This document shows, piece after piece, positions 1 to 57,855 of a DNA stretch of 64,000 bases (the first letter of the stretch is position 1; each line of letters begins with the position of its first letter). Below the pieces are notes generated by a model. That model made no database searches, had not been told where the DNA came from, and was given only the letters and a program-made list of their open reading frames with translations. This DNA is from Sipunculus nudus (Eukaryota; Annelida; Sipuncula; Golfingiida; Sipunculidae), in the NCBI GenBank assembly GCA_026874595.1, contig CM049306.1:60766019-60830018 (forward strand). Reading direction: 5' to 3'. The position numbers and the translations under genes were made by a program.

Positions 1-2229
1 TAACACTCACCCTCCTGACTTGGGTCATGATAACACTCACCCTCCTGACTTGGGTCAGGATAACACTCACCCTCCTGACTTGGGTCATGATAACACTCAC
101 CCTCCTGACTTGGGTCATGATAACACTCACCCTCCTGACTTGGGTCATGATAACACTCACTCTCCTGACTTGGGTCATGATAACACTCACCCTCCTGACT
201 AGAACCATGATAACACTCACCCTCCTGACTTGGGTCATGATAACACTCACCCTCCTTTATAGAACCACCATGACACTCATCCTCCTGACTAGAGCCATGA
301 TAACACTCACCCTCCTGACTTGGGTCATGATAACACTCACCCTCCTGACTAGAACCATGATAACACTCACCCTCCTGACTTGGGTCATGATAACACTCAC
401 CCTCCTGACTTGGGTCATGATAACACTCACCCTCCTGACTTGGGTCATGATAACACTCACTCTCCTGACTTGGGTCATGATAACACTCACCCTCCTGACT
501 AGAACCATGATAACACTCACCCTCCTGACTTGGGTCATGATAACACTCACCCTCCTGACTTGGGTCATGATAACACTCACCCTCCTGACTAGAACCATGA
601 TAACACTCACCCTCCTGACTTGGGTCATGATAACACTCACTCTCCTGACTTGGGTCATGATAACACTCACCCTCCTGACTAGAACCATGATAACACTCAC
701 CCTCCTGACTTGGGTCATGATAACACTCACCCTCCTGACTTGGGTCATGATAACACTCACCCTCCTGACTAGAACCATGATAACACTCACCCTCCTGACT
801 TGGGTCATGATAACACTCATCCTCCTGACTTGGGTCATGATAACACTCACCCTCCTGACTAGAACCATGATAACACTCACCCTCCTGACTTGGGTCATGA
901 TAACACTCACCCTCCTGACTTGGGTCATGATAACACTCACCCTCCTGACTAGAACCATGATAACACTCACCCTCCTGACTTGGGTCATGATAACACTCAC
1001 CCTCCTGACTAGAACCATGATAACACTCACCCTCCTGACTTGGGTCATGATAACACTCACCCTCCTGACTTGGGTCATGATAACACTCACTCTCCTGACT
1101 TGGGTCATGATAACACTCACCCTCCTGACTAGAACCATGATAACACTCACCCTCCTGACTTGGGTCATGATAACACTCACCCTCCTGACTTGGGTCATGA
1201 TAACACTCACCCTCCTGACTAGAACCATGATAACACTCACCCTCCTGACTTGGGTCATGATAACACTCATCCTCCTGACTTGGGTCATGATAACACTCAC
1301 TCTCCTGACTTGGGTCATGATAACACTCACCCTCCTGACTTGGGTCATGATAACACTCACCCTCCTGACTAGAACCATGATAACACTCACCCTCCTGACT
1401 TGGGTCATGATAACACTCATCCTCCTGACTTGGGTCATGATAACACTCACCCTCCTGACTAGAACCATGATAACACTCACCCTCCTGACTTGGGTCATGA
1501 TAACACTCACCCTCCTGACTTGGGTCATGATAACACTCACCCTCCTGACTAGAACCATGATAACACTCACCCTCCTGACTTGGGTCATGATAACACTCAC
1601 CCTCCTGACTAGAACCATGATAACACTCACCCTCCTGACTTGGGTCATGATAACACTCACCCTCCTGACTTGGGTCATGATAACACTCACTCTCCTGACT
1701 AGAACCATGATAACACTCACCCTCCTGACTTGGGTCATGATAACACTCACCCTCCTGACTAGAACCATGGTGACACTCACCCTCCTGACTAGAACCACGA
1801 TGACACTCAGGGACCTGACTACAGCCATGATAACACTCACCCTCCGAACTTGGGCCATGATGACACTCACCCTCCTGAGTAGAGCCATGATGACAATCAC
1901 TGACCTGACTAGATCCATGATGACACTCAATCTCCTGAGTAGAAAATGATAACACTCACTGACCTGACTAGAACCATGGTGACACTCACCCTCCTGAGTA
2001 GAACCATGATGACACTCACTGACCTGACTACAGCCATGATAACACTCACCCTCCGAACTTGGGCCATGATGACACTCGCCCTCCTGAGTAGAGCCATGAT
2101 GACAATCACTGACCTGACTAGATCCATGATGACACTCACCCTCCTGACTTGGGCCATGATGACACTCACCCTCCTGACTTGGGCCATGATGACATTAACC
2201 CTCCTCACAAGAACCATGATGATACTCAC
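1..2229 (-). repeat. 30-bp minisatellite abutting the STK32 splice donor
   Basis: About 74 head-to-tail units of 30 bp fill the start of the window and continue past its left edge. Two main variants alternate on the plus strand: one reads TTGGGTCATGATAACACTCA in its core, the other replaces TTGGGT with TAGAAC. From 1 to about 1790 the units are very uniform and in strict 30-bp register. From about 1790 to 2229, next to the exon, they are diverged. Read on the minus strand (the sense strand of the kinase gene), almost every unit contains GGAGGGTGAGT, a good 5' splice site. The period is a multiple of three, so long open frames run through the array on both strands. They are repeat by-products, not genes. 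Confidence 0.97.
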
Positions 2230-2346
2230 CCTTCTGAGGAGATCCCTCATTCCCTCTTCCCATGCTGATGGCATGTAGATGGTTACATCTCGGAACAACT
2301 GGTGGACTTCTGTAACTGGGGTAGATGAGTGGATCTCATATGGCCT
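2230..2346 (-). CDS. STK32: STK32-family kinase, exon encoding RPYEIHSS...DLLRR (C-terminal lobe)
   Basis: This 117-nt exon encodes 39 residues, RPYEIHSSTPVTEVHQL through SAWEEGMRDLLRR. From memory it matches the STK32A/B/C (YANK) kinase C-lobe after the LLRG motif, where vertebrate members read RPY(H/E/D)IHS... and end ...LL(R/K)KLL. The acceptor is TTGTTACAG before AGG (intron ends at 2347). The donor is AGAAGG followed by GTGAGT (intron starts at 2229). Both junctions are phase 0, which fits the preceding exon ending in RGK at phase 0. STK32 proteins are poorly studied AGC-type Ser/Thr kinases, some predicted to be N-myristoylated. The reading frame stays open for ten further 10-residue units into the downstream minisatellite, up to a stop at about 1927. 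The next exon should begin with LL(E/T)-like residues and lies left of the window. Confidence 0.9.
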
Positions 2347-11063: not shown

Positions 11064-13571
11064 ACAAGTGACCCATGGGTCATGACGCTCAGCTGACTGG
11101 GAAGAGATTTGCAAAAGGAAATTCTATCATCTGAATGGTAATATATTACCATTGAACTGAAGCATCAAACAGATTAACCAACAGGCTGAGATTGTGTCTG
11201 TATTAATATATCTCAAAAATAGAGAAAAAATGCGTAAACTTAAAAAAAATGTAGGTGGCTTCACCAGTCTGCAAAAACTAATAAAAACATTTAATGGTCA
11301 ATATCCATGCACAGAAGCATGGTGGTCTCTGGATTAGTTGTTCAGATAACTCAGCTTTTGTATCAGATTTTCCATTATTCTGAGGGATACTTTGGATTCC
11401 TATAGCTTGAAGGATATGGGTAATAGAGACCTAATTTCAGGTTTCCACAAACACTTTTCATGGGCCTCCTTGCATGACAAGAATGAAGATTCTTGGTCGA
11501 GTTGTTACAATGTACCCTGTTGACAGATAACCACATCTTTAAGGTCTCAAAAATAGAGAAAATAATTTGTAAAAATTTGAAAAAAATAGAGGTGTCTGCT
11601 GAAACTGATGGAACACATCATGATCAATATGTATGCCAAAAATCATGTGCGTCAGTGTTGTAGTTATTGAGATACTGGAGTTCTTGTATCAAATTTTTCA
11701 TTATTCTGGGAGGTACTTTGGAGCCATACAGCTTAATGGATATGGGTAACAGAGACCTGATTTCAGGTTTCCATGGAGATTTTTCATGGGTCTCCCGTGT
11801 GTAAATAATGAAGATTCTAGGTCCAGTTGTTATGATTTGTGCCCTGTTAACAGATGTTCATATCTTAAAAGGTCTCAAAAATAGAGAAAAAAATTCGAAA
11901 AAAAAAACCTGAACAAATATGTGGTGCCACCAGGCTGCAGAAACTAATGAAACACTCCATGACCAATATCCATACAAACAATTATGGTGATTTCTGCATT
12001 AGTTGTTCAGATAGTTCAGCTTTTGTATCAAAATTCCATTATTCTGAGCTGTAAAATATTTGGAGTGCCAAAGCTCAAAGGATATGGGTAACAGAGACCT
12101 AATTTCAGGTTTCCATGGAGACTTTTCATGGGTCTCCCTGTGTGTCAAGAATGAAGATTCTAGGTCCAGTCGTTACAATTTGAACCCTGTTGACAGATAA
12201 CTACATCCTTAAAGGTCTCAAAAATAGAGAAAAAAAATTGTAAAAATTTGAAAAATACAGGTGGCGCCACCAGTCTGCAGAAACTGATGTAGAATCTCAT
12301 GATCAATATGTATGCCAAAAATCAATACCATCAGTGATGTAGTTAATCAGATATTGAAGTTTTTTTTATGAAATTTTTTACTATTCTAGGGGGTACTTTG
12401 GGGCCCCAAAGATCAAAGAATATGGGTAACAGAGACCTTATTTCTGGTTTCCATGGAGACCTTTCATAGGTCTCTCAGAATGTCAAGAATGAAGATTCTA
12501 GGTCCAGTTGTAATGATTTGTGCCCTGTTAACAGATGTTCACATTTTTAAAGGTCTAAAAAATAGAGAAAACAATTGGTAAAAAATCGAAAAATACAGGT
12601 GGCGCCACCAGTCTGCAGAAACTGATGTAGAATCTCATGATCAATATGTATGCCAAAAATCAATACCATCAGTGATGTAGTTAATCAGATATTGAAGTTT
12701 TTTTTTATGAAATTTTTTACTATTCTAGGGGGTACTTTGGGGCCCCAAAGATCAAAGAATATGGGTAACAGAGACCTTATTTCTGGTTTCCATGGAGACC
12801 TTTCATAGGTCTCTCAGAATGTCAAGAATGAAGATTCTAGGTCCAGTTGTAATGATTTGTGCCCTGTTAACAGATGTTCACATTTTTAAAGGTCTAAAAA
12901 ATAGAGAAAACAATTGGTAAAAAATCGAAAAATACAGGTGGCACCATCAGTTTGCAGAAACTGATGAAACATCTCATGATCAATATGTATGCCGAAAATC
13001 ATGACCATCAGTGATGTAGTTAATGAGATATTGTAGTTTTGTATGAAATTTTTCATATTCTGGGGGGTACTTTGGGGCCCCATAGCTCGAAGGATATGGG
13101 TAACAGAGACCTTATTTCTGGTTTCCATGGAGACTTTTCATAGGTCTCTCAGAATGTCAAGAATAAAGATTCTAGGTCCAGTCTTTTCGATTTGTGCCCT
13201 GTTAACAGATGTTAACATTTTTAAAGGTCTCAAAAATAGAGAAAACAATTTGTAAAAAATAAAAAAATTCAGGTGGCGCCACCAGTTTGCAGAAACTGAT
13301 CAAACATCTCATGATCAATATGTATGCCAAAAATCATGACCATCAGTAATGTAGTTAATCAGATATTGAAGTTTTTGTATTCAAGTTTGACCAAATCCCT
13401 AATCAGCTCTGTAGACCCATCAGATGCACCTGCTTCAACAATTTGAAGTAGATCAGAGTAAAACTTTTGGAGATGTTGCCTCGCATATAATTCTTTATAG
13501 CCAGATGGACAGAAGGACAGCTGGAGGGAACTGATCACTATATCCCCGCTCTGCTGAGGCAGGGGATAATC
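11064..13571 (-). mobile_element. Composite Helentron-like element built of 338-bp monomers
   Basis: The left end is ACAAGTGACCCATGGGTCAT with GCTCAGCTGAC, as in the ACAAGGGACC family. The body from about 11205 to 13390 is roughly 6.5 tandem monomers of about 338 bp. Each has AGGTCTCAAAAATAGAG, ACAGGTGGCGCCACCAG, GGTACTTTGGGGCCCCA and TTTCCATGGAGAC landmarks. The right end is a different one: GGACAGAAGGACAG, ACTATATCCCCGCTCTGC, GAGGCAGGGGATAAT, the hairpin end seen at 5340-5417 and 17040-17145. It therefore looks like a chimera of two families. Confidence 0.65.
11205..13390. repeat. Tandem 338-bp satellite-like monomers
   Basis: Monomer starts marked by GGTGGCGCCACC or variants recur at intervals near 338 bp (for example 12260, 12598, 12936). 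The two monomers at about 12260-12935 are almost identical over their whole length, a very recent duplication. Related monomers lie at 47880-48545, 50447-51060 and 59268-59560. Confidence 0.85.
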
Positions 13572-21266: not shown

Positions 21267-23929
21267 ATGCAACTGTATGAATACACATATACACATATGC
21301 AAGCTTGATTTGTACAGAAAACTGTCATCTTCACAGAATCTTCTACAGCAGGGCGCTGTTATTCGGTGAGTGTTGGGTGACAAGCTTTAAGTTCGGAAAA
21401 CAAACTCGGAAAAAATGATCAAGAGTCTAGCGGCAAGTTTGTACATTTTACAGTTAAAGATTAACTTAATGCTCATTTGTATGGCCAGACTAGCATGCAA
21501 TGGCTGCACAGATAAACCTGCTGCTGGAATGATACTTTGTCAATGCTCATGCAAGTTTAGTACATTCTATCCCAAGGCTGACGAAATATACTTACTTGAG
21601 CACAAACAAGATGTGGTTGACATAACACACAAGCACTCTTAAATAAACTGTTCAGCCTTCAGGCACTTTCTAAGGTATAGGGAGATTAGCGGTGCATAAC
21701 TTGATGTAGTTTTCACACCTTTGCCTGGCCACATCGGCTCAGAAATAATTAATTAGGGTCACCAATGGAACTTAAACACCTGACTGCTGGCCCTTGACTA
21801 AAATTACAAAAATTCATGTGAACTATTAACATGATTGAAATATATTTCACATTTAAGATTTCAGAAAACAAATTTTCATAAAAACAGCATTCAGGAAAAC
21901 AGTGCTGTACTGTACTTATCCATTAAAAAGCCAACATACACAACTGTTTGTTATCAGGTAACCTTTATGCAAAATTAAACTTTTTAACTGGAAGTACTTT
22001 GGTAGTGCTACTATCACTAGTAAGTCACCAAAGTCTGTGAGGCAATACATACTCATGACAAACATATCTAACCAGCATATGAAACCAAACCAGGGCTGCC
22101 TGGTGTTTTTATAATTGGAATACTAAAAAACCTGATATATAACTCCTTAAAGAGGACTAAAACCACAAACTTAAATGGGTGAGTTGTGAGATGTGCAGAC
22201 AGATTAAGAAGGAAAATATACAAAAATGTAATTGAAAGTAAAACAGTCCCCACAGCAAGAACACTTTCATTTGTTAAATGTAAAGTTCACTTTGGACAGT
22301 CTCAGTTCTACAAAACATGCTGTATTCATGTATGGAAGCCAAAAATACAATATATCCTGTGAAATATGAAAAAAAATTATATGAGGAAACAAATACTGTT
22401 TTTCTGTGGTTAAGAGTCTATTCTAAAGTCAATATTTGCACACATGGCTGTCATGAATATTTCCTTTTATCAGGATCTATGTAATTTGTATCCTTCCCCT
22501 AAGGATTATCTCCAGAATTCCATGTAGTCCTCAGTTTTAAAATCTTCATCAACAGAAACAAACATTTATTCTTATGCACAGCCAGAAGATGAGACATATA
22601 TTTCAAATATGTTGCTTATACTACAAGTCACAAGGCTGAATTATTTCTCCTTTCATTTTATCTTTCCTTTTCCAAACAGTGAAAAAGATCCTTCATAATG
22701 AAAAATGTCCTCATTAAGTGGGTTGACAAATATTCACCAAAAATATTAAGCAAATTAAATATCCAATTTTACTTTGTCCTGAATAAAAAGTCACTTTATA
22801 TCATGAGTTTTTTTTTACAATAATTCCAAATATTAATAATTTAATAATTTAAATGAAAACATACCTCTCTAATCTAATAGGTCCCTGATTTTAACCATTA
22901 GACAATCTGTGGTGTTTTTTCACCTGATTTTAAAATAATATTTCATTTACTTTTTACTGTGAGACACACTGCCTTAAATGTTTATACCCTTTCCCTATGT
23001 TTTGTTCCAGCTCTCCTTCATTTTAACCACTGGTTTATAAGGCAAAATTCTCAAAGTTATCCCACCAGGGCTTTCACAGAGCAAATAATTGTAATCAGAT
23101 CAATCAGAGTGTGGAATCATATTGTGCATCCAGCTCCAAATTTTAAATAGGAGACACCCCCTTTCATAGTGTCAACACTGTCAAGGAACCCCAAAAAACT
23201 TGCAGTGGTTAAAATGAAGATGAGATCTGAGGAACTGTAGTATGTAACCACTGTGTGAGTACTATACTTCCATTACAGTCAAATGAAAGCATTAAAGGCA
23301 AATTCAAATAAACTGTAACTTTATTATTATACCCATCCTTTATAAATCAGCAATTTTCAGTCTTGCATAAAGTTACACCTCTGAAGATCGACTTTTGGGT
23401 TGGTGTTAATGATGATTGTTTGTGAGGGTGACTGCTGGAAGATCAGTGAAAGTGGTTCAGTCCTGGCGGAGTTATAATCAGACAGAGTTTACAGCTGACT
23501 AGACCACCATCCCAGGCCTCCATGCTGGCTGTTACAGCTTGTTTAGGAGAATGAGGTGTTCCCTAAAGACACATATTTGTCACCTGGTCTGGTCTAAGAT
23601 GACTGCACGCCTGATCCCAGGTCGAGCCCCACTTTACTGCGGACCTCTTCCTCATGTGACCATATCCCTAATGTCAATTTTAGCAAGTGTTTCTGCATTC
23701 TCCAGGGCCAGCTAACAATCAGAAGAAATAATGGGATGCAAAAACCAGGGCAAGAAAGATCCCTCCTTAACAGGCTTGAAGGCATTCCTGGTGGCTGGGT
23801 GTGTAAAACAAAACATGTCACATAAAGGTGCCCCATCTGAAATCCAAAGATCAAACTGCTGTCACAATAACAGCCTTTGTCAAGTCAGGCTATCTAAATC
23901 ATGAAGAACTGTCACTTTGTCCTTTCAGT
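21267..23929. other. Intron sequence, nothing recognised
   Basis: This is 2.7 kb of AT-rich sequence. Open frames of 61-86 codons (for example 21415-21642 plus and 23594-23854 minus) have no recognisable domain or splice context. Confidence 0.5.
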
Positions 23930-24927
23930 TCATCATCCTGATCTCACAGGTTTACCATCCTGATCTGGTCAGTTCATCATACTGATCTCACAGGTTTGAT
24001 CCTGATCTTGTCAGTTCATCATTCTGATCTCACAGGTTAACCACCCTGATCTTGTCAGTTCATCATCCTGATCTCACAGGTTTACCATCCTGAACTTGTC
24101 AGTTCACCATCCTGATCTCACAGGTTTACCATCCTGATCTTGTCAGTTCATCATCCTAATCTCACAGGTTTACCATCCTGATCTTGTCAGTTATCATCCT
24201 GATCTCACAGGTTTGATCCTGATCTTGTCAGTTCATCTCCCTGATCTCACAGGTTTACCATCCTGATCTTGTCAGTTCATCATCCTGATCTCACAGGTTT
24301 ACCATCCTGATCTTGTCAGTTCATCATCCTGATCTCACAGGTTTACCATCCTGATCTGGTCAGTTCATCATACTGATCTCACAGGTTTGATCCTGATCTT
24401 GTCAGTTCATCATTCTGATCTCACAGGTTAACCACCCTGATCTTGTCAGTTCATCATCCTGATCTCACAGGTTTACCATCCTGATCTGGTCAGTTCATCA
24501 TACTGATCTCACAGGTTTGATCCTGATCTTGTCAGTTCATCATTCTGATCTCACAGGTTAACCACCCTGATCTTGTCAGTTCATCATCCTGATCTCACAG
24601 GTTTACCATCCTGAACTTGTCAGTTCACCATCCTGATCTCACAGGTTTACCATCCTGATCTTGTCAGTTCATCATCCTAATCTCACAGGTTTACCATCCT
24701 GATCTTGTCAGTTATCATCCTGATCTCACAGGTTTGATCCTGATCTTGTCAGTTCATCTCCCTGATCTCACAGGTTTACCATCCTGATCTTGTCAGTTCA
24801 TCATCCTGATCTCACAGGTTTACCATCCTGATCTTGTCAGTTCATCATCCTGATCTCACAGGTTTACCATCCTGATCTTGTCAGTTCATCATCCTGATCT
24901 CACTGGTTTACCACATTGATCTTGTCC
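23930..24927. repeat. 44-bp minisatellite with higher-order structure
   Basis: About 22 units alternate GATCTCACAGGTTTACCATC and CTGATCTTGTCAGTTCATCA. Shared unit variants show block duplication. The run starting with GATCTGGTCAGTTCATCATA recurs at about 23961, 24354 and 24484. A longer block of at least 300 bp, including a CTGAACTTG variant and a shortened TCAGTTATC unit, occurs around 24080-24300 and again around 24610-24830. Confidence 0.92.
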
Positions 24928-30754: not shown

Positions 30755-31695
30755 CAAATGTGAAGCCAACAACAGTAGGTCCTCAGATATCCTGAAACAA
30801 ATGTGAAGCCAACAACAGTAGGTCCTCAGATATCCTGAAACAAATGTGAAGCCAACAACAGTAGGTCCTCAGATATCCTGAAACAAATGTGAAGCCAACC
30901 ACAGTAAGTCCTCAGATATCCTGACACAAATCAGAAGCCAACAACAGTAAGTCCTCAGATAACCTCACACAAATGTGAAGCCAACCACAGTAAGTCCTCA
31001 GATATCCTGAAACAAATGTGAAGCCAACAACAGTAAGTCCTCAGATATCCTGAAACAAATGTGAAGCCAACCACAGTACGTCCTCAGATATCCTCACACA
31101 AATCAGAAACCAACCAAAGTCCTCAGATATCCTCATAGAAAACATGCAAACCAAAGTAAGTTCTCAGATATCCTCACACAAATGTGAAACAACCACAGTA
31201 AGTCCTCAAATATCCTCACACAAATGTGAAGCCAACAACAGTAAGTTCTCAGATATCCTTTCACAAATGTGAAGCCAACCACAGTAAGTCCTCAGATATC
31301 TTCACACAAATCAGAAGCCAACCACTGTAAGTCCTCATATATCCTCACACAAATGTGAAGCCAACCACAGTAAGTCCTCAGATATCCTCACACAAATGTG
31401 AAGCCAACTGCTGTAAGGCCTCATATATCCTCACACAAATGTGAAACCAACCACAGTAAGTCCTCAGATATCCTCACACAAAAGGGAAGCCAACAAAAGT
31501 AAGTCCTCAGATATCCTCACACAAAAGAGAAGCCAACCACTGTAAGTCCTCATATATCCTAACACACATATGAAGCCAACCACAGTAATTCCTCAGATAT
31601 CCTCACACAAAAGTGAAGGCAACCAGTGTAAGTCCTCATATATCCTCACACAAATGTAAAGCCAACCACAGTAAGTCCTCAGATATCCTCACACA
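30755..31695. repeat. 43-bp minisatellite
   Basis: About 22 units are built around TGTGAAGCCAACAACAGTA and GTCCTCAGATATCCT. The first three units (30755-30890) are nearly identical. Later units vary (CTCACACAAATG replaces CTGAAACAAATG) and a few are shortened. Confidence 0.95.
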
Positions 31696-47100: not shown

Positions 47101-47877
47101 ACCTACAGTCATCAAAGTGGACTGCTTGACAATGTAAGGGAATACAACAAGAGCCTCCAAAAAATTCAATAACTAGCCTAATTTTGCAGCTTTTATTTTC
47201 AAATTTCAGATTTTAACAGATTAAATCCTTATGTGTACATGCTGTGAAAATTAAATCCACAGTACTTACAGGAAAAAAACGTGCCGTGGCCAAAGTTGGG
47301 CAAAATTTAAGGGACCAAGATATTTCTTGCCAATATTTAAAAAAGTTTAACAGATTTTGATCTAATTTTTGGTATACAATTAAGTTTTGATTAATTAAAG
47401 TTGTATTACTGAAAAAAAGTCCCTACCTTTAACACTTTTGGTTTTAAATGACCAAATATCTTTCCTGATTTTTTTACAAAGTCCATTATGTTTGGGCCCA
47501 TAACTTTTTTAAATTAAATAATACTGACTTAATTATTGGCATGCATAGGAACTATATAGAGGAAAATTTATGGTAAAAATGAAGAAAACCAGATGAGTGG
47601 TTTTGATAATAGGCAGTCCTGAAGTGTAAAAATAGATTTCTAATAAAAAATTGAGGTTTTTCCCTAATATCTCGAAGGAACGAAGTCCTATTGACCCAAT
47701 TTTCTGCATGGTAGGAGATTTTGGGGATATCTAACTGTATGCCGAATTTCAGATTCGTAGGTCCAATGGTGTCGAAACGTGCCAGTCTTATGGACGGACG
47801 GAGGGCAAGACAGACAGACGGACGGACAATGGACCATGACTATAGCTCAGATGACTTATAGTCAGCTGAGCTAAAAA

Positions 47878-48545
47878 ATGAAAAATACAGAAGGCGCCAC
47901 CAGTCTGCAGAAACTGATGAAACATCTCATGATCAATATGTATGCCAAAAATCATGACCATCAGTGATGTAGTTAATGAGATATTGAAGTTTTTGTATGA
48001 AATTTTTCATTATTCTAGGGGGTACTTTGGGGCCCCATAGCTCAAAGGATATGGGTACCAGAGACCCAGTTCCTGGTTTCCATGGAGACTTTTCATAGGT
48101 CTCTCAGAATATCAAGAATGAAGATTCTAGGTCCAGTCTTTACGATTTGTGCCCTGTTAACAGATGTTCACATTTTTAAAGGTCTCAAAAATAGAGAAAA
48201 CAATTCGTAAAAAATTGAAAAATACAGTTGGCGCCACCAGTCTGCAGAAACTGATGAAACATCTCATGATCAATATGTATGCAAAAAATCATGACCATCA
48301 GTGATGTAGTTAATGAGATATTGAAGTTTTTGTATGAAATTTTTCATTATTCTAGGGGGTACTTTGGGGCCCCATAGCTCAAAGGATATGGGTAACAGAG
48401 ACCCAATTTCTGGTTTCCATGGAGACTTTTCATAGGCCTCTCAGAATGTCAAGAATGAAGATTATAGGTCTAGTCTTTACGATTTGTGCCCTGTTAACAC
48501 GTCCTCATTTTTAAAGGTCTCAAAAATAGAGAAAACAATTCGTAA
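47878..48545. repeat. 338-bp monomers, left part of an interrupted array
   Basis: Two monomers contain GGCGCCACCAGTCTGCAG and GGTACTTTGGGGCCCCA. The array stops at ACAATTCGTAA, where the element at 48546 is inserted. Confidence 0.85.
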
Positions 48546-50446
48546 ACAAGGGACCTATGGGTCACTGTGCTCAGCTGACGTTAACCTTGAAGGTGAAAAA
48601 TCTAAAATAATATCTAATGGAGATAAAGTGTAAGAGGAAGAGGTAATAAAGGCCATGGTTGGTTTATATGATTGGTTTGTATTGATGAGCAAGAAATTGT
48701 TGCAAAAAATATTTTGTGACCTGACCATGTGTTTCCTAATGTTGAAACTAAAGCATGTGAGCAGTTTGTGAACAAATGATCTGTACTATTACCATGACCA
48801 TTAGTTGGTTTTTCGATTAACTGTTGACATTTCAGTAGTTTACACATTTGTTCAATTGGATCTATTTTTTTGTATAATATATATTATTGAATATATATGT
48901 ATTTTATTTATGAAATGTATACAGTTGAAATATAGCTAATTAACAACATAAAACAGGGCAAACAAAGCCTGATCTCAAATTCTGCTGAGGCAGGAAAATA
49001 ATGAAGAAATGTTTGTATTAAATCCTGATTTTTTTATCACATCAATTATTTTCTAATTTAAGTTTATATTTCTATACATTTCCAATTTAACATATATATC
49101 TGAATATAAAAGTTGATTCATAATTCTCAATTGCATCATCATAAATCTCAATCTTGTCAGATAACACCACATCATGCATACAAATGTTTATTTATTTTTT
49201 ACCGCAAAAATATATCTTTTAAATCTGCAAAACAATAAATATCTAAAAATAATACTTGATTTAGATTTCACAATTTTTAATTGTGTCTTTATTTATCCAT
49301 AATGTACTTCATATTTTAAAAATAATTTAAGCATACTGATGGGTTCCTTTATATTTGTTAAATTCATTTAAAAGAAAATTGATTTCTTTAAAAATGCTAC
49401 ATTACACAACATTGCATCTTCTGGATTACACCTTGAATTATTTTTTCAAGGAAAGTTTTTGCATATCGGAGTGAAAACAGCATTACAATTAAGGAGATAC
49501 AGTGAAAACAATAACAGTTACTGCATAACACTTGGTGGGTTGGGTTTGTGGGGGGGGGGGGTGATTGGGGTGGTGATATGAGAATAACTGTACACCTGTC
49601 ACAGCAGGGGATCTCCCCCAGTGACTGTAACAAATCAGAAACCCTGGCATAGCTGACTTCCAGTGACCTGGAGTGGGACCCTGCATCTGTAATCAAAGCA
49701 AGTGACTACAGAAAAAAAATCAATAACTAGCTTAATTTTCAAGCTTTTATTTCCAAATTTCAGATTTAGACAAACTAAATATTTATGTTTACATGCTGTG
49801 AAAATTAAATCAATGGTGCTTACAGGAAAAAAACGTGCCATGGTCAAAGTTGGGCAAAATTTAAGGTACTGATTTTTTTTTTATGCTAATAACTTAAAAA
49901 ATTCACAAAATTCAGATCTAATTTTGGGTAAACAATTGAATCTTAATTAAACATAGTTATATACTTGAAAAAATAGACTCTAGTTTCAAAATTTTTCATG
50001 TTAAGTGAGTTATTATTTTTCCTGATTTTTTACAAAGTCCAATATGTTTGGGCCCACAACTTAAAGAATTTATACTTTACAGACTTAATTTCTGGCATGT
50101 ACATAGGAACTATATAGAGTAATATTTATGGTAAATATGAGGAAAAACAGATGAGTGGTTTTGATATGAGGCAGTCCTGAAGTGTGAAAATAGGATTTTA
50201 ATAAAAAAATGAGGTTTTTCCTTAATTTCTCAAAGGAACGAAGTTGCAAAGACCCAGTTTTCGGCTTGGCAGGAGATCTTGGGGACATCTAACATTATGC
50301 TGAATTTTGGATTCCTAGGTCTTACGGTTTCAAAACATGCCACATCTACGGACGGACGGACGGACGGACGGACGGACAGACGGACGGACGATGGACAATG
50401 GACCACGACTATAGCTCAGATGACTTATAGTCAGCTGAGCTAAAAA
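48546..50446 (-). mobile_element. Helentron/DINE-1-like element, short subfamily, copy 2
   Basis: It is complete from ACAAGGGACCTATGGGTCAC to GTCAGCTGAGCTAAAAA, 1.9 kb. It interrupts a 338-bp monomer: ACAATTCGTAA on the left and TCGAAAAATACAG on the right are contiguous in other monomers (for example 12572-12596). This fixes the element's ends to within a few A residues and shows insertion into an A run. It is nearly identical to 14994-16870. Confidence 0.82.
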
Positions 50447-51204: not shown

Positions 51205-51876
<672 letters not shown>

Positions 51877-51965: not shown

Positions 51966-53120
51966 TTATTCTTATCTTTTCCTCATCCCACTCCATATTT
52001 CCATCCTACTCCTTATCCTCATCCCATTCCTTCTCATCCTCCTCCTTCTTATCCTCATCCCACTCCTTCTTATCCTCATCCCACTCCTTCTTATCCTCAT
52101 CCCTCTCCTTATCCTCATTCCACTCCTAATTATCCTCATCCCACTCCTCCTTATCCTCATCCAACTCCTTCTTATCCTCATCTCACTCCTCCTTATCCTC
52201 ATCCTTCTCCTTCTTATCCTCATTCCACTCCTCCTTATCCTCATCCCACTCCTCTTTATCCTCATCCAACTCCTTCTTATCCTCATCCAACTCCTCCTTA
52301 TCCTCATCCCATTCCTTCTCATCCTCATCCCACTCCTCGATCCTTATCCTGATCTCACTCTTCCTTATCCTCATCCCACTCCTCCTTATCCTCATCCCAT
52401 TCTTCCTTATCCTCAACTCACTCCTTATCCTCATCCCACTCCTCCTTATCCTCATCCCACTCCTTCTTATCCTCATCCCACTCCTTATCCTCATCTCACC
52501 CCTCCTTATCCTCATCTCACTCCTTCTTATCCTCATCTCACTCCTCCTTATCCTCATCCCACTCCTCCTTATCCTCATCCCACTCCTCCTTATCCTCATC
52601 CCACTCCTCCTTATCCTCATCCCACTCCTTATCCTCATCCCACTCCTTCTTATCCTCATCTCACCCCTCCTTATCCTCATCTCACTCCTTCTTATCCTGA
52701 TCTCACTCCTCCTTACCCTGATCTCACTCCTCCTTATCCTCATCCAACTCCTCCTCATCCTCATTCCACTCCTCTTTATCCTCATCCAACTCCTTCTCAT
52801 CCTCATCCCACTCCTCTTATCTTCATCTCACTCCTCCTTATCCTCATCTTACTCCTTCTTATCCTCATCTCACTCCTTATCCTCATCCAACTCCTTCTTA
52901 TCCTCATCTCACTCCTCCTTATCCTGATCCCACTCCTCATCCTCATCCCATTCCTTCTCATCCCACTCCACCTTATCCTCATCCCTCTCCTCCTTATCCT
53001 CATCCCACTCCTCCTTATCCTCATCCCTCTCCTCCTTATCCTCATCCCACTCCTTCTTATCCTCATCCCACTCCTTATCCTCATCACACTCCTTCTTATC
53101 CTCATCTACATTACTTTCTC
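51966..53120. repeat. 21-bp minisatellite, purine-rich on the gene's sense strand
   Basis: About 55 units of ATCCTCATCCCACTCCTTCTT are mixed with 18-bp and 15-bp shortened versions and CTCATC/CTCCTCC variants. On the minus strand it reads GGAGTGGGATGAGGATAAG, rich in GGG and GA motifs. It begins about 115 bp upstream (in transcript terms) of the acceptor at 51852. Long frames open on both strands are by-products. Confidence 0.95.
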
Positions 53121-55256
<2,136 letters not shown>

Positions 55257-56304
55257 GGACTACCACTGTAATGTCTTTATTAAGCACCACTGTAATATCT
55301 TTATTGAGGACCACTGTAATGTACTTATTGAGAACCACTATCATGTCTTTATTGAGAACCACTGTAATGTCTTTATTGAGCACCACTGTAACGTCTTTAT
55401 GGAGAACCCCTATAATGTCTTTATTGAGCACCACTGTAATGTCTTTATTGAGAGCCAATGTAATGTCTTTATTGAGAGCCACTGTAATGTCTTTATTGAG
55501 AGCTACTGTAATGTCTTTATTGAGAGCCACTGTATTGTCTTTATTGAGCACCACTGTAATATCTTTATTGAGCACCACTGTAATGTCTTTATTGAGAACC
55601 ATTGTAATGTCTTTATTAAGCACCACTGTAATGTTTTTATTGAGCACCACTGTAATGTCTTTATTGAGCACCACTGTAATGTCTTCATTGAGCACCACTG
55701 TAATATCTTTATTGAGCACCACTGTAATGTCTTTATTGAGCACCACTGTAATGTCTTTATTGAGAACCACTGTAATGTCTTTATTGAGCACCACTGTAAT
55801 GTCCTTATTGAGAACCATTGTAATGTCTTTATTGAGAACCACTGTAATGTCTTTATTGAGCACCACTGTAATGTCTTTATTGAGCACCACTGTAATGTCT
55901 TTATTGAGAGCCACTATAATGTCTTTATTGAGAGCCACTGTAATGTCCTTATTGAGAACCATTGTAATATCTTTATTGAGCACCACTGTAATGTCTTCAT
56001 TGAGCACCACTGTAATATCTTTATTGAGCACCACTGTAATGTCTTTATTGAGAACCACTGTAATGTCTTTATTGAGAACCACTGTAATGTCCTTATTGAG
56101 AACCATTGTAATATCTTTACTGAGAACCACTGTAATATCTTTATTGAGCACCACTGTAATGTCTTTATTGAGCACCACTGTAATGTCTTCATTGAGCACC
56201 ACTGTAATATCTTTATTGAGCACCACTGTAATATCTTTATTGAGCACCACTGTAATGTCTTTATTGAGAACCACTGTAATGTCTTTATTGAGAACCACTG
56301 TTAT
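55257..56304 (-). repeat. 24-bp minisatellite carrying AATAAA in sense orientation
   Basis: About 44 units read, on the plus strand, GTAATGTCTTTATTGAGCAC followed by CACT, with AACCAC and AGCCAC variants. On the minus strand, the sense strand of the kinase gene, the unit reads AATAAAGACATTACAGTGGT followed by GCTC. About 35 units keep an intact AATAAA; the rest have AATAAG, AATGAA or similar. The period is a multiple of three, which explains open frames on both strands (for example VLNKDITV repeats). Confidence 0.95.
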
Positions 56305-56700: not shown

Positions 56701-57855
56701 ATTCACTGATAAAAGACAGCCCTGCATTAAGTAAAAGACAGCCCCTACATTTAGTCAAAGACAGCCCTACACTTTATCAAAGACAGCTCCTAAATTTAGT
56801 CAAATCCTTACATTAAGTCAAAAACAGCCCTTATATTAAGTCAAAGACAGTCCTAAATTAAGTCAAAGACAGCCCTTACATTAAATCAAAGACAGTCCTT
56901 ACATTAAGTCAAAAACAGTCCTTACATTTAGTCAAAAACAGCCCTTAGATTATGTCAAAGACAGTCCTTACATTTAGTCAAAGACAGCCCCTACATTAAG
57001 TCAAAGACAGCCCCTACATTAAGTCAAAGACAGTCCTTACATTTAGTCAAAAACAACCCTTACTTTAACTCAAAGACAGTCCTTACATTTAGTCAAAGAT
57101 AGCCCCTACATTAAGTCAAAGACAGCCCTACATTTAGTCAAAAACAGCCCCTACATTAAGTCAAAGACAGTTCTTACATTTAGTCAAAAACAGCCCTTAG
57201 ATTATGTCAAAGACAGTCCTTACATTCAGTCAAAGACAGCCCCTACATTAAGTCAAAGACAGCCCCTAAATTAAGTCAAAGACAGTCCTTACATTTAGTC
57301 AAAAACAACCCGTACTTTAAGTCAAAGACAGTCCTTACATTTAGACAAAGATAGCCCCTACATTACGTCAAAGACAGCCCTACATTTAGTCAAAAACAGT
57401 CCTTACATTAAGTCAAAGACAGTTCTTACATTTAGTCAAAGACAGCCCCTACATTAAGTCAAAGACAGTCCTTACATTTAGTCAAAAACAGCCCCTACAT
57501 TAAGTCATAGACAGTCGTTACATTAAGTCAAAGACAAGTCTTACATTTAGTCAAAAACAGCCCTTACATTAAGTCAAAGACAGTCCTTACATTAAGTCAT
57601 AGACAGTTCTTACATTTAGTCAAAGACAGCCCCTACATTAAGTTAAAGACAGTCCTTACATTTAGTCAAAAACCACTTACATTAAGTCAAAGACAGTCCT
57701 TACATTTAGTCAAAAACCACTTATATTAAGTCAAAGACAGTCCTTACATTAAGTCAAAGACAGCCCCTATATTTAGTCAAAGACAGCCCTATATTCAGTC
57801 AAAGACAGCCCCTACAATAAATCAAAGACAGCCCTTACATTACATCAAAGATCAA
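56701..57855. repeat. 22-bp minisatellite
   Basis: About 52 units contain CATTAAGTCAAAGACAGCCC with CATTTAGTCAAAAACAGTCC variants, which often alternate. Larger blocks recur: the run with CCCTTAGATTATGTCAAAGA occurs at about 56940 and 57190. On the sense (minus) strand most units contain TGTA. Confidence 0.93.

What the first reader, a model, noticed from the sequence alone, without database searches (positions are those of the whole stretch)
1..2250. A minisatellite that seems to have grown from the gene's own 5' splice site
The 30-bp array abuts the STK32 exon in register. Taking 2250-2221 (last 21 exon bases plus first 9 intron bases) as unit zero, it matches the array unit at about 1862-1891 at 24 of 30 positions, including GGTGAGT. 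The units next to the exon are the most diverged and the far ones the most uniform. That suggests the array began at the junction and later homogenised outward. The result is well over 60 donor-like GGTGAGT sites in a row directly downstream of the real donor. Minisatellites seeded on an exon-intron junction are not something I recall as a described class.
Basis: partly seen in the sequence, partly recalled or inferred. Interest (0 to 1): 0.86.

Follow-up and report, generated by a model that had tools for sequence, protein, structure and literature searches.

The report
Minisatellite grown from a splice site
In a marine peanut worm, a roughly 6,000-base tandem repeat appears to have grown out of the junction between an exon and the following intron of a kinase gene, leaving over a hundred copies of the splice signal behind the real one; such repeats are known from some lancelet and human genes, and here similar ones turn up at a number of other genes of the same worm.

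Summary
The observation largely holds. The window is from Sipunculus nudus. An STK32 exon (2346-2230, minus strand) ends AGG|GTGAGT; a 30-bp array follows in register. The 21 exonic bases match a unit at 16 of 21; 0 of 736 other GTRAG sites and 0 of 24 other exon ends do. A genome search with array DNA hit only this array. The exon codes conserved kinase residues, so the array derived from the junction. It runs past the window to about -3770: 200 units, 115 GGTGAGT plus the real one. The class is not new: amphioxus 'mirages' and human cases are in print. Scale and taxon seem new: 19 of 37 donor-word arrays inspected in this genome start on an exon donor with exonic bases in the unit (by eye; seven with protein homology), against 0 of 8 control arrays. 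With so many minisatellites, random birth at junctions roughly explains the number. Use of array donors in RNA is untested.

The parts
2230..2346 (-). STK32 (YANK kinase) exon, 117 nt, phase 0 at its donor, codes RPYEIHSSTPVTEVHQLFRDVTIYMPSAWEEGMRDLLRR
   Evidence: tblastn with a recalled human STK32A; PDB 4fr4 STK32A E 4.9e-20 for this exon joined to the two that follow; the 120 listed of 3,843 homologs aligned, none with an insertion after this point; limits read from the sequence
2221..2229 (-). real 5' splice site GTGAGTATC following AGAAGG
   Evidence: exon end by homology and by continuity with the next exon, which starts LLLVETTLRLW at about window -20664
2221..2250 (-). 'unit zero': last 21 exon bases plus 9 intron bases, 24 of 30 identical to array units at 2010, 1891, -2636 and -3751
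1..2220 (-). in-window part of the 30-bp minisatellite; it continues outside the window to about -3770 (200 units, 80 distinct, 115 GGTGAGT in all)
   Evidence: TRF; flank L002; unit parsing; counts
51748..51852 (-). another STK32 exon ([35 protein letters not shown]); the nearest array starts about 130 bp upstream of its acceptor and does not abut it
   Evidence: TRF
54526..54627 (-). another STK32 exon ([30 protein letters not shown]); no TRF array abuts it
   Evidence: TRF

Best explanation
An intronic minisatellite of the 'mirage' kind. A roughly 30-bp segment straddling the exon-intron junction of STK32 was duplicated in tandem. The copies fell on the intron side of the real donor and multiplied, by unequal exchange or slippage, to about 200 units (6 kb), with runs of homogenised units inside and diverse relics at both ends (origin and amplification inferred from the unit patterns). 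The real donor is the first of 116 GGTGAGT sites; 113 array sites share its nine bases AGG|GTGAGT. The spliceosome is expected to use the first one, because exon definition fixes the 117-nt exon; the rest are then removed inside a 22.9-kb intron (inferred, RNA not examined). The same structure occurs at a number of other genes of this genome. It fits a minisatellite-rich genome in which arrays are born everywhere and those that cover a junction are tolerated.
For: Exonic 21 nt match array units at 16 of 21: 0 of 736 other GTRAG sites reach this (max 13), 17 of 515,564 other 30-mers, 3 of 20,000 shuffles, 0 of 24 other exon ends. All 53 matches of a 150-bp array query lie in this one array. The exon codes MRDLLRR, and the 120 aligned STK32 proteins largely keep the LL and the two basic positions, so the exon is older than the array. 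Unit zero groups, with weak support, with units from both array ends. Other genes show the same anatomy: PKA RI-alpha, ABCC2/MRP1, aquaporin, CSE4/CENP-A-like and a PH domain, where protein homology runs into the repeat unit up to its donor (aquaporin: to two residues before it), and exonic bases recur in the array (28 of 28 in L050, L054, L056, L066).
Against: At six positions nearly all array units differ from unit zero, so the founding copy is inferred, not seen. No orthologous junction without the array was available. No RNA evidence. Synonymous encodings of MRDLLRR reach 16 of 21 in 2.2% of 15,552 cases, so the amino-acid sequence itself favours some resemblance.
Confidence: 0.87

Rival explanations
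1. The array arose within the intron from unrelated sequence, and the likeness to the exon end is chance plus the shared donor motif.
For: Only 24 of 30 bases match and the donor heptamer accounts for seven; six positions differ in nearly all units.
Against: The exonic part alone reaches 16 of 21, which 0 of 736 other GTRAG sites and 0 of 24 other exon ends reach; perfect register with no gap; clean cases at other genes with 28 of 28 exonic bases repeated.
Confidence: 0.06
2. The array is a functional splicing device: downstream donors are used to add in-frame 10-residue repeats to the kinase, or to tune STK32 output.
For: The first nine units keep the frame, and read-through from the exon is open for 100 residues, to a stop at 1929; 113 array sites equal the real donor over nine bases.
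Against: Among 20 junction-seeded arrays, STK32 included, only 8 have a period divisible by 3, as expected by chance (p 0.64), so there is no sign of selection for frame; none of the 120 aligned STK32 homologs has an insertion there; amphioxus mirages were reported not to disturb splicing (PMC3087553, passages read).
Confidence: 0.05
3. Splice junctions are special birthplaces of minisatellites in this genome, for example through transcription- or U1-linked breaks.
For: Triplets of AGGTGAGT number 706 against 164 for the reversed word, of AGGTAAGT 608 against 437; 19 of 37 inspected donor-word arrays start on an exon donor, 0 of 8 control arrays do.
Against: Counted as distinct arrays the excess is small (17 AGGTGAGT against 11 TGAGTGGA over the same span). 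Array density (24 in 264 kb) times 168,000 introns predicts about 400 arrays covering a donor by chance; the roughly 83 inferred for the two octamers lie within the 40-120 expected for assumed octamer shares of 10-30%.
Confidence: 0.15

Closest known systems
Amphioxus 'mirages' (Adh3, globin, PGBD5, troponin C genes; PMC3087553 and PMC3902484, passages read; Canestro 2002 known only from the reference list, not held)
   Same: Minisatellite-like tandem repeats of an exon-intron boundary, splice signals in many units, concerted evolution with array edges left out of it.
   Different: Here an annelid; a far longer array (about 200 units; the globin cases have a few units of about 150 bp, Adh3 units are 10-72 bp); similar arrays seen at a number of genes of one genome; RNA effect unknown.
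[quoted passage not shown] title seen in reference lists; that it is the 6-16 gene and its details are recalled)
   Same: Tandem unit with a donor site at an exon-intron boundary.
   Different: There, by its title, several donors are provided to a transcript; here usage is untested. Recalled unit 12 bp against 30 bp.
Internal tandem repeats at exon-intron boundaries of human segmentally duplicated genes (PMC2812944, passages read)
   Same: Minisatellites of about 30-bp units at exon-intron boundaries, cryptic splice sites.
   Different: About four copies on average, recent paralogs, linked to formation of novel introns; the STK32 array lies in an intron with the exon kept.
Intron gain by tandem genomic duplication (PMC4974935; listing and start of abstract only)
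   Same: Tandem duplication around a splice-like signal.
   Different: No gain of an intron is shown here; the duplication lies inside an intron.

Membership tests
Mirage minisatellites | Tandem unit spans an exon-intron boundary (exonic plus intronic bases) | tested here: met
   for STK32; for other loci
Mirage minisatellites | Many but not all units keep the splice signal | tested here: met
   115 GGTGAGT in 200 units; 31 units of the TC type have lost it
Mirage minisatellites | Concerted evolution inside the array, boundary units excluded | tested here: met
   Ten-unit bins: mean pairwise identity 26.0-28.4 of 30 from 1621 to -749, against 23.5-24.5 on the exon side and 23.4-25.1 from -779 to -3751. 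Uniform runs are internal, though diverse units also lie between them
Mirage minisatellites | Regular splicing not disturbed | not testable with these tools
   No RNA data; STK32 exons on both sides of the array were found
Mirage minisatellites | Length polymorphism, including somatic | not testable with these tools
   One haploid assembly only
Minisatellite with multiple used splice donors (Turri 1995 type) | Array donors used in transcripts | not testable with these tools
   No RNA; the period test gives no hint of frame selection
Intron gain by tandem duplication | A new intron created by the duplication | not tested
   Intron position in other animals was not compared at DNA level

The most novel reading that the evidence does not exclude
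Splice donors are preferred birthplaces of minisatellites in Sipunculus nudus, so that its genome carries several hundred arrays of tens to hundreds of competing 5' splice sites behind constitutive exons, a natural test of how the first of many identical donors is chosen.
Probability: 0.17. Interest if true: 0.8.

Novelty: new member of a known kind. Interest (0 to 1): 0.52.

Why it matters
Minisatellites seeded on a splice junction were reported for some lancelet and human genes. Seeing them at a number of unrelated genes of an annelid suggests that they are a general by-product of minisatellite birth. It also supplies natural constructs in which a real donor competes with tens to a hundred or more near-identical copies, so rules of donor choice (first site, exon definition) could be read from RNA-seq without any engineering. 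They are also candidate starting points for intron growth and intron gain.

Tried and rejected
Transposon-borne or multi-locus repeat: not supported, all 53 matches to a 150-bp array query lie in one array (the tool warns that it scores only the best candidates and skips very common words). An array that wrote itself into the exon: rejected, the exon end codes conserved residues.

A first, stricter acceptor threshold found only 5 of 36 exon-like cases (2 of 17 and 3 of 19) against 1 of 45 AGGTRAG sites; I relaxed it and report three thresholds with their null: 28, 26 and 20 of 36 against 344, 241 and 154 of 733. The null sites are any GTRAG, not matched to the full octamer. With the loosest threshold, scanned over several end points, 4 of 8 control arrays (L069, L070, L074, L075) also show a short exon-like stretch, so that test alone is weak. 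Rfam gave nothing in the window at gathering scores or in 11100-13500 up to E 1. PDB gave no significant match for the L038 exon (best E 0.76) and Pfam none, so I do not count it. L037 and L045 have too few exonic bases in the unit to count; L041 is unclear; L033 looks like a coding repeat. A second control word (TGAGGATG) met a busy machine and was not asked again. The 3' splice-site version of the survey (TTTWCAGG triplets) did not complete, so acceptor-seeded arrays are untested.

Full report
What the window is. The window is G000:C1:60766019-60830018 of a 1,426,538,692-base assembly. Contig C2 is 98,497,835 bases long, exactly the N10 scaffold of the Sipunculus nudus assembly in Table 3 of PMC10212961 (passages read), whose total is 1,426,776,655; C3 is 97,945,123 against 97,953,984 for N20 there. 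I therefore take the species as the peanut worm S. nudus, an annelid. Its STK32 was not close to any listed protein (best Capitella, 78%; 120 of 3,843 hits listed).

The gene. STK32 lies on the minus strand. Exons matching a recalled human STK32A were found at window 129027-128692, 93556-93515, 54627-54526, 51852-51748, 2349-2227 (true limits 2346-2230, read), about -20688 and about -35846. The exon in question codes 39 residues and ends ...MRDLLRR at AGAAGG|GTGAGTATC, phase 0; the next exon begins LLLVETTLRLWTL about 22.9 kb further on. In the 120 aligned homologs the two leucines are kept in 105 and 104, the two following positions are mostly K or R (second also Q), and none has an insertion there.

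The array. The window holds only the first 2.2 kb of it. With the flank, TRF gives -3792 to 2237, period 30, 201 copies. Parsing gives 200 units, 80 distinct, 13 of them not exactly 30 bp. GGTGAGT occurs 115 times in the array and once more at the real donor; inside the window 56 times and the real donor. AGGGTGAGT, the real donor's nine bases, occurs at 113 array sites, so no model based on those nine bases can tell them from the real one. CAGGTCAGT, another donor-like form, occurs 24 times.

Is unit zero real. The 30 bases 2250-2221 match units at 2010, 1891, -2636 and -3751 at 24 of 30. The 21 exonic bases alone match at best 16 of 21. None of 736 other GTRAG sites in the 264-kb region outside the array reaches 16 (maximum 13); none of 515,564 other 30-mers reaches 24 of 30, and 17 of them reach 16 of 21; 3 of 20,000 shuffles do. 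None of 24 other exon ends (5 of STK32, 19 of the seeded loci below) reaches 24 or 16 (maxima 18 and 13). Against this, 2.2% of 15,552 synonymous encodings of MRDLLRR reach 16, so part of the likeness may follow from the amino acids.

Direction and polarity. The exon codes old kinase residues and the array was found at one place only in the genome (53 of 53 matches), so the array derives from the junction. In ten-unit bins, mean pairwise identity is 23.5-24.5 of 30 from 2220 to 1651, 26.0-28.4 from 1621 to -749, and 23.4-25.1 from -779 to -3751; mean identity to unit zero is 19.3-20.9 of 30 throughout. Uniform-type units run from 1801 to -869 with short breaks and from -2100 to -2490. In a unit tree, with weak support as 30 columns allow, unit zero groups with units 2100, 1891 and -3751, from both ends. 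The exon's C at column 12 (counted from 0) is kept in 20 units, all outside the uniform runs.

Is it alone. I searched the genome for three exact donor octamers in tandem, spacing 15-45. AGGTGAGT: 706 hits against 164 for the word read backwards. AGGTAAGT: 608 against 437. Hits are clustered, and only about the first hundred are listed. By distinct arrays in the listed rows I count 17 for AGGTGAGT over C1 to C4:62.5 Mb, 22 for AGGTAAGT over C1 to C4:24.5 Mb, and 11 for the backward word TGAGTGGA over the first span. The STK32 array itself is not found by these octamers (it reads AGGGTGAGT), so they undercount.

I fetched flanks of 17 of the 17 AGGTGAGT arrays (L032-L048), of 20 of the 22 AGGTAAGT arrays (L049-L068) and the upstream side of 10 of the 11 control arrays (L069-L078; the eleventh contains a donor-like word itself). 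By eye, asking for an exon open up to the first donor and at least 12 exonic bases recognisably repeated (9 to 12 of the last 12 recur), 8 of 17 (L032, L035, L036, L039, L042, L043, L044, L047) and 11 of 20 (L050, L051, L053-L057, L061, L066-L068) start on an exon donor. L052 showed no upstream boundary and counts as a miss. Of the 10 control arrays, 8 show an upstream boundary and none of these starts on an exon donor; L074 has an exon-like end about 45 bp away with an unrelated unit.

Homology checks on the exons: 20 peptides, in frames chosen by eye, went to Pfam and six single ones to the PDB. PKA RI-alpha, E 8.6e-25, 41 of 41 residues aligned, the last ten (PGEDFFIITE) inside the repeat unit. 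ABCC2, E 9e-9, 55 of 55, the unit coding about twelve of them. Aquaporin, Pfam MIP 6.6e-10 and PDB 7.2e-9, residues 1-40 of 42. CSE4/CENP-A-like, E 1.5e-4, 27 of 27. PH domain, E 9.6e-4 in the PDB, residues 4-34 of 34 (Pfam PH only 0.016). Kunitz 4.1e-20 and LRR_8 3.9e-9, whose matched stretches end before the unit. These are the seven with homology. Arv1, E 0.0028, is below its curated cut-off and not counted. The L038 exon had no significant match. In 8 control loci, given in three frames, the best Pfam E-value was 0.05. Exonic bases recur in the array at 28 of 28 in L050, L054, L056 and L066. A mechanical test points the same way: exon-like structure in 26 of 36 donor-array loci against 241 of 733 other GTRAG sites (Fisher 2.9e-6), and a median open run to the donor of 45 against 26 codons (p 1.1e-6); the first, stricter version gave 5 of 36 against 1 of 45, and under the loosest version 4 of 8 control arrays also show a short exon-like stretch.

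How many are expected by chance. The 264-kb region holds 24 arrays of period 15-45 with three or more copies, about 130,000 per genome if typical. Table 7 of PMC10212961 gives 28,749 genes with 6.84 exons each, about 168,000 introns. A random 33-bp founder would cover a whole donor octamer in about 400 arrays. The two octamers together give an estimated 83 seeded arrays against 40-120 expected if they make up 10-30% of donors, a share I assumed. So random birth of minisatellites suffices, within a factor of a few. The density estimate rests on one region that was chosen because it holds such an array.

Does it do anything. The first nine units keep the frame, and read-through from the exon is open for 100 residues, to a stop at 1929 in the tenth unit, so use of a donor in the first nine units would add up to 90 residues in frame. 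But periods divisible by three are 8 of 20 among seeded arrays including STK32 (p 0.64), so there is no sign of selection to keep frame, which fits array donors being rarely used. RNA was not available.

Place in what is known. Tandem repeats spanning exon-intron boundaries were named 'mirages' in amphioxus Adh3 and seen in globin genes with concerted evolution and boundary exclusion (PMC3087553, passages read), and in PGBD5 and troponin C (PMC3902484, passage read). [quoted passage not shown] PMC2812944 reports tandem repeats at exon-intron boundaries in human segmental duplications (passages read). My searches showed no report of such arrays in an annelid, but I saw only the top of each list and the library holds open-licence papers only. 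So this is a new member of a known kind, with a spread through one genome that I did not find described.

Noticed in passing
window 11211-13388 and 47872-48546: Two arrays of one roughly 338-bp repeat family (6.5 and 2 copies) sharing GGCGCCACCAGTCTGCAGAAACTGATGAAACATC; a hammerhead-ribozyme likeness came to mind, but Rfam finds nothing in 11100-13500 up to E 1 or in the whole window at gathering scores.
   Followed up: partly
window 23925-24926, 30755-31695, 51982-53106, 55262-56301, 56712-57851: Five further minisatellites of 0.9-1.1 kb with different units; TRF arrays of period 10 or more cover 12% of the 264-kb region.
   Followed up: partly
window -20465 to -18572 (left flank, L003-L004): A 33-bp array of about 37 copies about 200 bp upstream of the next STK32 exon, so the same intron has an array near each end.
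   Followed up: no
L033 (C1:74850200-74851600): A 33-bp array with GGTGAGT that looks like a coding repeat (KVSQESQPSED-like) rather than a splice junction.
   Followed up: no
L044 (C3:95726700-95727700): A centromeric-histone-like exon (best PDB matches CSE4) whose donor appears to have seeded a 36-bp array.
   Followed up: partly
C2:8183736-8184773: A control-word array whose units also read CAGGTGAGTGG, possibly another junction-seeded array.
   Followed up: no
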